Assembly (NCBI GenBank): GCA_944390575.1
Contig: CALXQJ010000005.1
Location: 1-64,000 of the forward strand
Source: an uncultured Spirochaetota bacterium
GTDB lineage: Bacteria > Spirochaetota > Brachyspiria > Brachyspirales > Brachyspiraceae
Direction of reading: 5' to 3'
Length of the DNA: 64,000 nucleotides
Shown here in pieces: positions 43,241-47,616 of the stretch. Position 1 is the first letter of the stretch. The number at the start of each line of letters is the position of its first letter. The notes under the pieces are model-generated. The model ran no database searches. It saw only the letters and a list, made by a program, of their open reading frames with translations, and was not told the origin of the DNA. The position numbers were made by a program, and so were the translations under genes.

Positions 43241-44905
43241 TTAAAAGTAAATATTTATAAGAGAGTTCATATTTATTATACTTATTGGCTTTATTCTGTT
43301 TGTTGTTTTTTCTAATACTATGAATCTATTTTTATCTATTTCTGAGTTTTTATAGTTTTTTATATATTCTATTGAAGTTACTATATTTTTTCTTATATAT
43401 AAATTTATAATTTGATTATTTATATCTATAATATCAAAGTATAGTATTTTTTTTTCTTTATTATATTTTATATTTTTTAATTCTATAAACTCTAATATAA
43501 ATATATTGTATGATTTTTTATTATTATAAAAGTAGTTATAGTTTATATTTTTATTATCTATGGTAAATAGCTCTTTATTTGTAGTTTTTATATTTTTTAT
43601 AAAATTATAATTTATTCTATCTGTAAGCTCTATAATAGTATTTTTTGAAGAGGATATTTTATTGTTATTATTAATTTTGGGATTTTTAAATTTTATATTA
43701 TGTTTTGATAATTCTTCTATTGATGAGTTAAAGTGATTTTTTGATGTGTATATTTTGTTTATATCATCAAATGAGTCTTTATAGAATGTTGGAGATACTG
43801 TAGAGTATGTATATATTTCTTTGTTTTCTAAATTATATAAATATGTACTTATACCATAATAGCCACTAGATGTAATAAATGGACTTGCACCTAATGAGAT
43901 TAGGTTTATATCGCTTTGTTCTTTATATGTGCTTCTTACTTCTCCTATTATACTATTTATTTCTTTATAATTATTTTCTTCTTTTAATTGTTTTATTAGT
44001 TTTATAGTGTTATATAGTTTTGATATTGTACGAAAAGAATACACTTTATTAAAATATGATTTTTTTAATATCATAGATTCTATATTATTGTATAAGCTTC
44101 TCACAAGTTTTGATATTTCTGGAAAATTATTTACTTGTAATTTTGTTGCTATTTTTTCTAATTTATAAATATCATTATCATTATAAGAATATATTCCTTT
44201 ATTAAAAATATCTTCTATGATGTTGTTTAATATATATAATATATTAATATCAATATCATCTTTTTGAGAATATAAATATTTATCTATATTTTCTAAAGAA
44301 TTATTTATTAATTTGTATTTTAGTATTGCCATTATTTTATGAGTACATAATGACTTTATATCATTATCTTCACAGCTACAAATAGATTTTTCAATAGAGT
44401 TTGTATTTGTAAAATATATTGTATATTCTTTTGTATATGCTTTTATACTGTTTTCATTTTCATCAAAGGTTATATTATCTTTTTCAAAGTTTTCTACTGC
44501 ATATTTAAAATTTTTTTTATTTGATATTTTAATAATATCTTCTATATTGATGTCTATTATTTCTTTGTAGTATTTATTTTGTGTTTGATTATTTTCTTTT
44601 TCATTATTATTTGTGTTTTCTATATAGTTTTTATTAATATATAAAATACTTATTACTATATGCTTACAAAAGTTGTTAGAAGGGCAAGAGCATTGAAATT
44701 TTTTTATATCTTTATCTAATACTACTTTTATATTTTCATTTAATGATAATTCAATACTATCATCAGATATATTTATAATTTTTATATAAAAAAAGTTATT
44801 TTCTAAATCTTTAACACTTCTTTTGTATATTCCATTATTTGTTTTTGATATTAGAAAGTTTTCATCTTTATAGTATTTATCAATATATTCTAATATTGTA
44901 CTCAT
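43241..44905 (-). CDS. Protein with two SWIM zinc-finger motifs
   Basis: 554 residues. Two CxC-x(n)-CxH SWIM motifs are exact: C72-x-C74, C80-x-H82 (QCSCPSNNFCKH) and C176-x-C178, C187-x-H189 (CSCEDNDIKSLCTH). The rest is Asn-, Ile- and Lys-rich, helical from 200 to 330 and beta-rich at the end, with no nuclease, helicase or transposase motif. SWIM domains bind DNA or proteins and usually accompany SNF2 helicases or occur in DNA repair complexes. No helicase gene adjoins this one. A cytoplasmic nucleic-acid-binding role is plausible. Confidence 0.78.
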   Translation of the reverse strand: MSTILEYIDKYYKDENFLISKTNNGIYKRSVKDLENNFFYIKIINISDDSIELSLNENIKVVLDKDIKKFQCSCPSNNFCKHIVISILYINKNYIENTNNNEKENNQTQNKYYKEIIDINIEDIIKISNKKNFKYAVENFEKDNITFDENENSIKAYTKEYTIYFTNTNSIEKSICSCEDNDIKSLCTHKIMAILKYKLINNSLENIDKYLYSQKDDIDINILYILNNIIEDIFNKGIYSYNDNDIYKLEKIATKLQVNNFPEISKLVRSLYNNIESMILKKSYFNKVYSFRTISKLYNTIKLIKQLKEENNYKEINSIIGEVRSTYKEQSDINLISLGASPFITSSGYYGISTYLYNLENKEIYTYSTVSPTFYKDSFDDINKIYTSKNHFNSSIEELSKHNIKFKNPKINNNNKISSSKNTIIELTDRINYNFIKNIKTTNKELFTIDNKNINYNYFYNNKKSYNIFILEFIELKNIKYNKEKKILYFDIIDINNQIINLYIRKNIVTSIEYIKNYKNSEIDKNRFIVLEKTTNRIKPISIINMNSLINIYF

Positions 44906-45060: not shown

Positions 45061-46375
45061 TTATTCTATATTTTCTTTTTGTATCAAAACCCGAGCGAAT
45101 GCTTCTTTTCCATCATAATATGGTGTATATCTTTTCTCATAAACAATTTTATATCCTAATTCTAAAATTCCATTTAATATAGCATTGGCAGATATTCCAA
45201 AAGGTTTATTGTAGTTGCTTGGAATATAAGAATTGTCAACTATTAACATACCATCATCATCAAATTTTTTATATTTTTCAGGTATTTCTTCAAGAGGTAT
45301 TATTTTTAATCTTTTATATTGTGGGCGATTTATCACTTCTAAATTTGTAAACCAATTACCAGTTGCCCTTATTAATTCTTTTTTATAGTTCAGATACCAA
45401 TAAACACTATTATATCCACCCCATACCTGTTTGTTTATAAAGTATTTAATATATGCTGTATTTATACAATTAGTGATATTTGAAATTATTAAGAATTTTT
45501 TACCACTATTTATAACTATATCCCAATAGTCTATAGCTCTTGAAAAAGGAGGATTGGTGCATACTATATCAGCTTCTTCTTTTAGTATTTTTAATGATAA
45601 ATCATCATCAAAAGAACCAGTTATAGCCTTTTGGAGCATTTATAAGTTCATTAGCCCCTTCTTTTGTAAAAATATAGCCCTTAGCACCAGCATTAAATAA
45701 ATCTACTTGTCCGCTATAATGAGTACATATAAGTTTTTTTAATTTTAGTCTTAAAAAGTTTTTTATAAAATATAATGCAAAAGCAGAAGAATCTTTTTCT
45801 GTTCTGCTTTCACCCACAGCATCATCACAGTTGCAAAACACACATTTATTTTCCCAAATTTCTATAGGATACATTTCTATTTCTTTTTCAACATCTTCAT
45901 AACGAGTATAAAACTCATCATTTTTAACTTTTTGAGCTCTTTTCATAACATCTCTAAAAGTTATGCCTCTCTCTTCAAGAGTGGGTGTTGTTTTCTTTAC
46001 GTATTTTACAATTGTCTTTTTTTCTTCCTTTATAAATATTTCTTCTATAAAATTAGGATGTGATTTTATAAAAGAAACATACATATCAAACAAAGCTTTA
46101 TTATAAAAATACATTTCACGTCTGTCTTGTTCTCTTAAATGAGGAAAATTGTTTTTTATATCATTTTCTATTTCTCGCATATTTTTTACTTTAGCTGTAA
46201 AAAGATAGCAAAAAACATTATCCTTAGATTTTCCAGTAGTGGAATTATATTCTTTTAAACGTCTTTCAAGATTATCTGTAATTCCTATTTTACATTTTGT
46301 AAGCTCTAAAGATGATTGCACTATATATAGATACTCTTTTTTATAAGTCTTATTGTTGATTTTAGATTTTGGCAT
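45061..46375 (-). pseudogene. EcoRI-type adenine DNA methyltransferase fused to a GIY-YIG-like domain, frameshifted
   Basis: Two overlapping frames make one protein of about 430 residues. The first (46375 to 45608, 255 residues) begins with a GIY-YIG/T5orf172-like domain: KEYLYIVQSS, KIGITDNLERRLKEYN (YIG-like and catalytic Arg), MREIENDI and EMYFYN. Then comes the start of an M.EcoRI-family methyltransferase: KNDEFYTRYEDVEKEI, CVFCNCDDAV and LKLKKLICTHYSG. It runs into a stop after an out-of-frame tail. The second frame (45639 to 45061, 192 residues) continues the same enzyme with GSFDDD, ADIVCTNPPFS (catalytic NPPF) and the C-terminal part. The shift lies near CCAAAAGG at about 45628-45640. 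It could be a real disruption, a phase-variable site or a sequencing error. Promoter and AGGACAT ribosome site are intact. Confidence 0.8.
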
Positions 46376-46401
46376 TAAAATATGTCCTAAATATATTTTT
46401 T

Positions 46402-46433
46402 AAGTATTATAAGATAATACTTATAAGTTTCAA
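46402..46433 (-). promoter_or_regulatory. Promoter of the methyltransferase gene with inverted repeat
   Basis: Minus strand: TTGAAA (46428-46433), 16-nt spacer, TATAAT (46406-46411). AAGTATTAT (46402-46410) and ATAATACTT (46414-46422) are perfect arms 3 nt apart, covering the -10 box. Such an operator would allow repression, as in self-controlled restriction-modification genes. Confidence 0.65.
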
Positions 46434-46647
46434 GTTAAGAACATAATCACTTTTATGTAAAGATGATAATATGTCATTTTTACTTATCAATAAAACTTCT
46501 ACTATAATAAACATATTTTTTGTATATACTCCTTTTAAGTTCTCAAAATTCGTAAAAATAGTTATTATTAGCTATATACATTTTTCTAAATTATATTAAA
46601 TTTCTATAATCGAAAATTAGTTCTTATATCACATTGGAGTTTTGATT

Positions 46648-47616
46648 ATGAAAAGAGCATTTATAAAAAATATATCATATTATGTTCCAGAGAAAGTATT
46701 AACTAATGAGTATTTTGAGAGCATTTTAGATACAAATGATGAGTGGATTAAAACACGTACAGGAATAGAGACACGTCGTATGGCAAAGTCGGATGAAACA
46801 ATTTTTGATATGGGAATTAGTGCAGTTCGCAATTTAGAAAATAAGGGTGTAGATTTAAAAGAAGTTGATGCTATTTTAGTGCCTACAGTTACTAAAGATT
46901 ATATTTTTCCTTCTATGGCAGGTCAGCTTCAAAATGCTTTGGGGCTAAAGAATTGTTTTGCTTTTGATTTATCTGCTGCTTGTTCTGGATATGTATATGC
47001 ATTAAATACTGCTACATCTTTAATAGAGAGTGGTCAGTGTAAAAATGTTTTGATAGTTAGTGCTGAAAAGCTTACTAAAGATATTAATTGGAAAGATAGA
47101 GGTACTGCTATTTTATTTGGTGATGCTGCTACTGCTTCTCTTATAAGTTGTAGAGAGGATGGAAAAGGCATTATAGGTATGCATATGCAAAGTGAAGTAG
47201 ATATGAGTATTAAACTTAATGGAGGTAGTTTTCTTCCAATAGATGCTAATAATGTAGATTCTCCAGATTATAAAATATATATGGATGGTTCTGAGACTTT
47301 TAAGCGAGCTGTTACAGAGTTTTCAAATTCTATAGATAAGGTTCTTGAAACATCAGGAAAAACTATGTCTGATATTACTTATTTTGTACCACATCAGGCT
47401 AATCTTAGAATTATGCAGGCTGTTGCTAAGAGAATAGGGCTTTCTTCTGATAAAGTTCCTGTTATTTTAGATAAGTTTGGTAATTGTTCTTCTTCATCTA
47501 TAGGGCTTGCTTTGGCCGATTCTTTGGATAATAATAAAATTAATGATGGGGATTTAGTATGTCTCACTGCTTTTGGTGGAGGCTTTACTTGGGGGTCTAC
47601 ATTAATGATTTGGTAA
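46648..47616 (+). CDS. fabH: Beta-ketoacyl-ACP synthase III, copy 1
   Basis: 322 residues from ATG 46648 (GGAG 9-12 nt upstream). It condenses acetyl-CoA or a branched acyl-CoA with malonyl-ACP to start fatty-acid synthesis. Catalytic Cys is in DLSAACSGYVYAL, His in FVPHQANLRI and Asn in FGNCSSSS. The N-terminal block TNDEWIKTRTGIETRRMA is typical. A paralogue of nearly equal length lies 9 kb downstream. Neither is next to other fab genes. It has a strong terminator. Confidence 0.93.
   Translation: MKRAFIKNISYYVPEKVLTNEYFESILDTNDEWIKTRTGIETRRMAKSDETIFDMGISAVRNLENKGVDLKEVDAILVPTVTKDYIFPSMAGQLQNALGLKNCFAFDLSAACSGYVYALNTATSLIESGQCKNVLIVSAEKLTKDINWKDRGTAILFGDAATASLISCREDGKGIIGMHMQSEVDMSIKLNGGSFLPIDANNVDSPDYKIYMDGSETFKRAVTEFSNSIDKVLETSGKTMSDITYFVPHQANLRIMQAVAKRIGLSSDKVPVILDKFGNCSSSSIGLALADSLDNNKINDGDLVCLTAFGGGFTWGSTLMIW

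What the first reader, a model, noticed from the sequence alone, without database searches (positions are those of the whole stretch)
45061..46375. GIY-YIG-like domain fused to an EcoRI-type adenine methyltransferase, interrupted by one frameshift
Seen: two frames overlapping by 32 nt together give one M.EcoRI-family enzyme (CNCDD, TNPPF) preceded by a KIGIT..LERRLKEYN domain of GIY-YIG/T5orf172 type. Known: EcoRI-type MTases usually stand next to a separate endonuclease; GIY-YIG domains are nucleases. Inference: a nuclease-methyltransferase fusion could be a single-gene modification or defence element, now broken or switched off. The promoter with an inverted repeat over its -10 box is intact, as expected for a recently lost or phase-variable gene.
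Basis: partly seen in the sequence, partly recalled or inferred. Interest (0 to 1): 0.7.

Follow-up and report, generated by a model that had tools for sequence, protein, structure and literature searches.

The report
Nuclease–methyltransferase fusion gene, locally broken
A roughly 430-residue gene that joins a DNA-cutting domain to a DNA-marking enzyme, probably a one-gene restriction-modification system that moves between distantly related gut bacteria, is present in this Brachyspira genome as a single copy broken by one frameshift, while intact copies exist in relatives.

Summary
On the minus strand, 46375..45608 encodes a T5orf172/GIY-YIG domain plus the first part of an EcoRI-type adenine methyltransferase; 45639..45061 encodes the rest in another frame. 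Five other Brachyspira genomes, Helicobacter, gut Alphaproteobacteria, Fibrobacterota, Treponema/Spirochaetaceae and a prophage contig carry the same fusion, mostly as one open frame of about 430 aa. The fusion is a real conserved family; the window copy is a broken member.

All GIY-YIG catalytic columns are conserved, with the Lys variant known from R.Hpy188I. No partner gene recurs; in two Brachyspira the bare 1.3-kb gene sits exactly between two core genes that are adjacent elsewhere. One homologue lies in a complete IS1595-type transposon, a second between matching terminal repeats, two in prophages. One MAG holds 11 copies. Methyltransferase-only relatives nest inside the fused clade; many copies are broken.

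Best reading: a compact one-chain restriction-modification enzyme working like type IIC/IIG but with a GIY-YIG nuclease. Activity and recognition site are not shown. The local frameshift is recent or an assembly error; it is not at a repeat, so phase variation is not supported here, although two homologues carry poly-C/G tracts that put their start codon out of frame.

The parts
45608..46375 (-). Piece 1 of the broken gene: start codon, GIY-YIG/T5orf172 domain, linker, first part of the EcoRI-type methyltransferase (motif CNCDD)
   Evidence: ORF; Pfam T5orf172, MUG113, EcoRI_methylase; 77-81% identity to intact homologues
46061..46336 (-). GIY-YIG/T5orf172 nuclease domain (about 92 aa)
   Evidence: Pfam; alignment A2, catalytic columns Y4, K16, R26, Y30, E57 in 30/30 and N79 in 29/30 sequences; predicted strands and helices in the order E-E-H-E-H
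45695..45946 (-). N-terminal part of the EcoRI-type methyltransferase domain
   Evidence: PF13651 positions 2-76, E 7.2e-21
45608..45640 (-). Site of the frame break (the two open frames overlap here); no simple repeat, longest run 4-5 bases
   Evidence: only frameshift-like pair found in the 24 kb of window DNA that could be compared with relatives
45061..45639 (-). Piece 2: rest of the methyltransferase (catalytic motif TNPPF and presumed recognition part), other frame
   Evidence: PF13651 positions 124-284, E 2.9e-17; 67-73% identity to intact homologues
46406..46433 (-). Promoter-like site TTGAAA-16-TATAAT
   Evidence: 11 of 12 consensus matches; inferred function
46401..46423 (-). Inverted repeat TAAGTATTATCTTATAATACTTA over the -10 box
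   Evidence: not seen in relatives
46384..46388 (-). Shine-Dalgarno-like AGGAC, 8 nt before the start codon
   Evidence: sequence; the same motif is expanded to 11 tandem copies in homologue L018
45027..45059 (.). Terminator-like stem-loop directly after the stop codon
   Evidence: 14 pairs, scored on the + strand; inferred function

Best explanation
The gene belongs to a family of compact one-chain restriction-modification enzymes. The C-terminal EcoRI-type (NPPF) module would read a DNA site and methylate adenine on host DNA; the N-terminal GIY-YIG domain, held by that module at the same site, would nick or cut DNA in which the site is unmethylated. Two molecules, or two nicks, would be needed for a double-strand break. 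One gene of about 1.3 kb with its own promoter is thus a full self/non-self system, and it spreads as a bare gene, in IS1595-type transposons and in prophages. In the window the gene is broken inside the methyltransferase: piece 1 would keep the nuclease fold but lose the NPPF motif and the presumed recognition part, so neither activity is expected. Shown: the fusion, its conservation, catalytic residues, lack of a partner gene, mobility, the frameshift. Inferred: both activities, site specificity, coupling of the domains.
For: Conserved fusion across Spirochaetota, Helicobacter, Alphaproteobacteria, Fibrobacterota. Nuclease catalytic columns 30/30 or 29/30, the set Y, K, R, Y, E matching R.Hpy188I Y63, K73, R84, Y88, E149 (PMC2630997). 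Methyltransferase motifs CNCDD and TNPPF invariant. The domain order, nuclease then NPPF methyltransferase, is that of type IIC enzymes (PMC4081073). No recurrent neighbour; flanks are housekeeping genes such as Hsp70, flagellin, RF3, ExbD, LigA, MatE. Bare-gene insertion with empty sites in G002, G008, G010, G020. Transposon with 24-bp terminal repeats and 8-bp target duplication in L017; prophage genes beside L018 and L099. Methyltransferase-only members nest in the fused clade, and one lies directly behind a fused copy in L144, as some type IIC enzymes have an extra methyltransferase. An engineered GIY-YIG REase-methyltransferase fusion (RM.Eco29kI) is active in both respects and restricts phage (PMC3039593).
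Against: No enzymatic evidence. No carrier-specific avoidance of GAATTC (O/E 0.77 and 0.75 in carriers, 0.38 in a non-carrier), so the site is unknown. Fold matches of the nuclease domain are weak (best Slx1 6sei, E 0.08, probability 0.93). Breaks downstream of an intact nuclease domain are common, so the nuclease part alone is not lethal; this fits dependence on the C-terminal module but also fits an inactive nuclease. Eleven copies in one genome have no clear hypervariable recognition block.
Confidence: 0.6

Rival explanations
1. The enzyme is a methyltransferase only (epigenetic or anti-restriction). The GIY-YIG-like domain is kept for DNA binding or targeting and does not cut.
For: Methyltransferase-only relatives exist; the nuclease fragment alone is tolerated in many broken copies; copies in prophages could protect phage DNA; poly-C/G tracts at the start of L016 and L019 recall regulatory phase-variable methyltransferases.
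Against: The catalytic Tyr, Lys, Arg, Tyr and Glu columns are invariant in 30 sequences with 54-81% identity to the window domain, which a binding-only domain would not need.
Confidence: 0.25
2. The nuclease domain mainly serves mobility, like a homing endonuclease, with the methyltransferase protecting the insertion sites. The gene is a selfish mobile gene more than a defence system.
For: Sporadic distribution; exact bare-gene insertion between core genes; 11 divergent copies in one genome and up to three on one 17-kb contig; T5orf172 domains are common in phages (Pfam name; PMC10448857 listed).
Against: Flanks differ widely between loci, so there is no common homing site; two copies move by a transposase instead. 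Homing endonucleases do not carry methyltransferases (established knowledge).
Confidence: 0.1
3. The frameshift in the window is a sequencing or assembly error and the gene is intact in the organism.
For: Both pieces show strong purifying selection (dN/dS 0.12-0.17, as between intact relatives); no stop or second lesion; no reads or second genome of this species available.
Against: It is the only frameshift-like pair in about 24 kb of window DNA that could be compared; the break is not in a long homopolymer; broken copies are frequent in the family, mostly in Helicobacter.
Confidence: 0.3
4. Programmed frameshifting or local phase variation joins the two pieces.
For: Two overlapping frames; other family members carry poly-C8, poly-G9 or a pentanucleotide repeat near the start.
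Against: Intact relatives have one continuous frame through this region; no repeat at the break; the repeats in relatives are at the start of the gene, not here.
Confidence: 0.04

Closest known systems
Type IIC/IIG restriction-modification enzymes (MmeI, Eco57I, BcgI)
   Same: One chain with an N-terminal nuclease followed by an NPPF/Y/W adenine methyltransferase; some act without a separate methyltransferase, others have one beside them (PMC4081073)
   Different: Their nuclease is PD-(D/E)XK; here it is GIY-YIG/T5orf172. From general knowledge they are 900-1000 aa, here about 430. AdoMet stimulation and cleavage at a distance are untested here.
M.EcoRI and the EcoRI system (PF13651)
   Same: Methyltransferase family, motifs CNCDD and TNPPF
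   Different: EcoRI has a separate endonuclease gene; none is found here. Recognition of GAATTC is not supported.
R.Hpy188I and R.Eco29kI (GIY-YIG restriction endonucleases)
   Same: GIY-YIG fold by sequence and by predicted strand-helix order; Hpy188I has the same Lys in the YIG half-motif and Tyr four residues after Arg (PMC2630997)
   Different: They are separate endonuclease proteins; here the domain is fused and of the T5orf172/MUG113 branch. R.Hpy188I has Gln where this family has Asn.
RM.Eco29kI, engineered fusion
   Same: GIY-YIG REase joined to a methyltransferase, both activities retained (PMC3039593)
   Different: Man-made, with an m5C methyltransferase of another family.
DnmA-YeeB-YeeC and OspHL35III/DrdVI-type systems
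   Same: A T5orf172/GIY-YIG nuclease works with an adenine methyltransferase (PMC9973331, PMC4752239, PMC4996451)
   Different: Separate genes with a helicase/translocase; MmeI-like, not EcoRI-like, methyltransferase.
COG4123 methyltransferase-Slx1-like GIY-YIG fusions of Lactobacillales
   Same: GIY-YIG and an NPPY methyltransferase in one protein (PMC1564403)
   Different: Reverse order, Slx1 branch; the methyltransferase is not a restriction enzyme.

Membership tests
EcoRI-type adenine methyltransferase (PF13651) | Match above the curated cut-off over the domain | tested here: met
   75.3 and 63.5 bits in the two pieces, cut-off 26.4
EcoRI-type adenine methyltransferase (PF13651) | AdoMet motif and NPPF catalytic motif | tested here: met
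   CNCDD and TNPPF invariant in 20 homologues; in the window they sit in different frames
EcoRI-type adenine methyltransferase (PF13651) | Recognition of GAATTC | tested here: inconclusive
   No carrier-specific avoidance; methylation not measurable here
GIY-YIG superfamily, T5orf172/MUG113 branch | Profile match above the cut-off | tested here: met
   T5orf172 39.3 bits (cut-off 20), MUG113 37.8 (22.3); generic GIY-YIG 17.8, below 22.6
GIY-YIG superfamily, T5orf172/MUG113 branch | Catalytic Tyr, Tyr/Lys, Arg, His/Tyr, Glu, Asn | tested here: met
   Columns 4, 16, 26, 30, 57 invariant, 79 in 29 of 30; compared with R.Hpy188I in PMC2630997
GIY-YIG superfamily, T5orf172/MUG113 branch | Fold | tested here: inconclusive
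   Predicted E-E-H-E-H order; Foldseek best hit Slx1 6sei, probability 0.93 but E 0.08; HIGLE, Slx1 and UPF0213 among the top 11
Type IIC/IIG restriction-modification | Nuclease and NPPF-type methyltransferase in one chain, nuclease first | tested here: met
   intact homologues
Type IIC/IIG restriction-modification | PD-(D/E)XK nuclease (majority of the group) | tested here: not met
   The domain is T5orf172/GIY-YIG
Type IIC/IIG restriction-modification | Both activities, AdoMet effect, cleavage near an unmethylated site | not testable with these tools
   needs purified protein
Two-gene type II system | Separate endonuclease gene beside the methyltransferase | tested here: not met
   No recurrent neighbour in 25 loci; bare-gene insertion
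Phase-variable gene (window copy) | Simple repeat at the break or promoter | tested here: not met
   Longest runs 4-5 bases at the break; no repeat upstream
IS1595-type transposon cargo (window copy) | Transposase and terminal repeats around the gene | tested here: not met
   No terminal repeat in the window, no such transposase in 26 Brachyspira genomes; met for homologue L017

The most novel reading that the evidence does not exclude
A previously undescribed class of minimal one-gene restriction-modification systems (about 430 aa, 1.3 kb): GIY-YIG nuclease fused to an EcoRI-type methyltransferase, shared across at least four phyla, carried as cargo by IS1595-type transposons and prophages or inserted as a bare gene, and expanded to 11 divergent copies in one termite-gut bacterium.
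Probability: 0.5. Interest if true: 0.65.

Novelty: new variant of a known kind. Interest (0 to 1): 0.5.

Why it matters
If active, this would be among the smallest self-contained restriction-modification systems, natural proof that a GIY-YIG nuclease can be coupled to an EcoRI-type reader in one chain, and a mobile single-gene barrier shared by spirochaetes, helicobacters and rumen bacteria. It would predict new methylation motifs in strains that carry intact copies. The frequent breakage and the repeat tracts suggest that hosts gain and lose it often. For the window itself the consequence is modest: one broken accessory gene.

Tried and rejected
GAATTC or other palindrome avoidance as a clue to the recognition site: carriers 0.77 and 0.75, non-carrier 0.38; no carrier-specific signal. 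PDB by sequence: no hit for either piece or the profile. The SWIM-domain gene (43241-44905) and the FabH-like gene (46642-47616) as partners: rejected, both occur in all 26 Brachyspira. The 403-aa gene behind the G001/G003 copies as a partner: rejected, core gene in 25 of 26 genomes. Transposon ends around the window copy: none; the ...TATATAGTTC... at about 44945 is too weak. Phages and plasmids: only the methyltransferase half matches. Paralogue block identity to locate the recognition part: no clear hypervariable block. Programmed frameshift: rejected because relatives have one frame.

Full report
What is there. The minus strand of 45061-46375 holds two open frames that overlap by 32 nt. 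Piece 1 (46375..45608, 255 aa) carries T5orf172 and MUG113 matches above their cut-offs and the start of the EcoRI_methylase family; piece 2 (45639..45061, 192 aa) carries the rest. A promoter-like site (46433..46406, 11 of 12) with an inverted repeat over the -10 box and a terminator-like stem right after the stop make it a self-contained unit.

Relatives. Six of 26 Brachyspira genomes have the gene, 20 lack it; in the five others the two pieces are one open frame. The same fusion occurs in Alphaproteobacteria, Fibrobacteraceae, a Chitinivibrionia MAG, Treponema/Spirochaetaceae, many Helicobacter and a prophage contig. In a sample of 393 genomes of the phylum only 8 carry it. In the tree of the methyltransferase part the fused proteins form one clade, separated by long, fully supported branches from ordinary EcoRI-type enzymes. 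Three Brachyspira copies group near rumen Alphaproteobacteria and Fibrobacteraceae, two others elsewhere; one or two entries into Brachyspira are possible because deep forks are weak. Methyltransferase-only members (L169, L148, L144b) nest inside the clade, so nuclease loss after fusion is the simplest reading; L144b lies directly behind a fused gene.

Nuclease domain. In 30 sequences the columns Y4, K16, G18, R26, Y30, N31 and E57 are invariant and N79 is kept in 29. R.Hpy188I uses Y63, K73, R84, Y88, E149 and Q169, with the same Lys for Tyr in the YIG half-motif (PMC2630997). AlphaFold gives the strand-strand-helix-strand-helix order of GIY-YIG domains at moderate confidence (mean pLDDT 72); Foldseek ranks Slx1 first but with E 0.08, so the fold match supports and does not prove the assignment.

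Single gene. Neighbours of 25 loci share no recurrent partner; where identified they are ordinary genes (Hsp70, flagellin, RF3, MatE, ExbD, LigA, iron alcohol dehydrogenase). In G001 and G003 the gene sits between an M23 peptidase gene and a 391-403 aa core gene; in G002, G008, G010 and G020 these two genes are adjacent, so the insert is essentially the gene itself. In Helicobacter bilis it sits between an exbD-type gene and ligA with 9-26 nt to spare.

Mobility. L017 (Alphaproteobacteria) is a complete transposon: IS1595-type transposase and the fused gene between perfect 24-bp inverted repeats GGGAACTATATACAATGCTAACCA, flanked by the 8-bp duplication GAACAAAT. L019 (Fibrobacteraceae) has the same arrangement with its own perfect 24-bp repeats that share GGGAACTATATAC, without a visible duplication. 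L018 lies beside terminase genes and L099 beside an integrase and a neck protein gene. No such transposase was found in 26 Brachyspira genomes and no ends around the window copy.

Switching and decay. L016 and L019 have poly-C8 and poly-G9 tracts between an ATG and the domain, and that ATG is out of frame in both; L018 has the Shine-Dalgarno-like AGGAC expanded to 11 tandem copies and no in-frame ATG, GTG or TTG. This is the usual look of phase-variable genes, but no length variation was observed. Broken copies are frequent: in Helicobacter about half of the copies are interrupted or partial. In nearly all broken copies that still have their start, the first piece keeps the whole nuclease domain, so the nuclease alone is not lethal; cutting probably needs the C-terminal module, or the nuclease is inactive.

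The local lesion. There is no repeat at the break. dN/dS against intact relatives is 0.12-0.17 in both pieces, the same as among intact genes, and no other frameshift pair was found in the 24 kb that could be compared. The break is therefore recent or an error; without reads the two cannot be separated.

Function. By anatomy this works like a type IIC/IIG enzyme: nuclease first, NPPF methyltransferase after it, one chain, no partner (PMC4081073). An engineered GIY-YIG-methyltransferase fusion has both activities and restricts phage (PMC3039593), so the design is feasible. Activity, site and coupling remain inferred; the GAATTC avoidance test was negative. In the papers searched no natural GIY-YIG-EcoRI-type fusion was described; this library omits most subscription journals, and REBASE could not be consulted.

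Noticed in passing
L017:3784-7316: Complete IS1595-type transposon with 24-bp terminal inverted repeats and the 8-bp target duplication GAACAAAT, carrying the intact fused gene as cargo; inserted inside a repeat-rich gene.
   Followed up: yes
L019:4804-7644: Second IS1595-type element with perfect 24-bp ends in another phylum; the fused gene starts behind a poly-G9 tract that puts its ATG out of frame.
   Followed up: partly
L018:5898-5960: AGGAC repeated 11 times at the place of the Shine-Dalgarno site in a Brachyspira prophage copy; no normal in-frame start codon.
   Followed up: partly
G032 (L024, L028, L031, L240-L244): Eleven copies of the fused gene, 67-85% identical to each other, in one termite-gut Chitinivibrionia MAG; three on one 17.5-kb contig.
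   Followed up: partly
L144:1495-3562 (G034): Fused gene directly followed by a methyltransferase-only paralogue.
   Followed up: partly
L100:5001-5882: Viral contig with a methyltransferase 53% identical to the family over its methyltransferase part but without the nuclease domain.
   Followed up: no
L098:3883-5155 (G003): A second, distant EcoRI-type methyltransferase in a Brachyspira genome that also has the fused gene.
   Followed up: no
window 43241-44905: SWIM zinc-finger protein with GC down to 17.5%, fast-evolving (44-49% identity) yet present in all 26 Brachyspira genomes.
   Followed up: no
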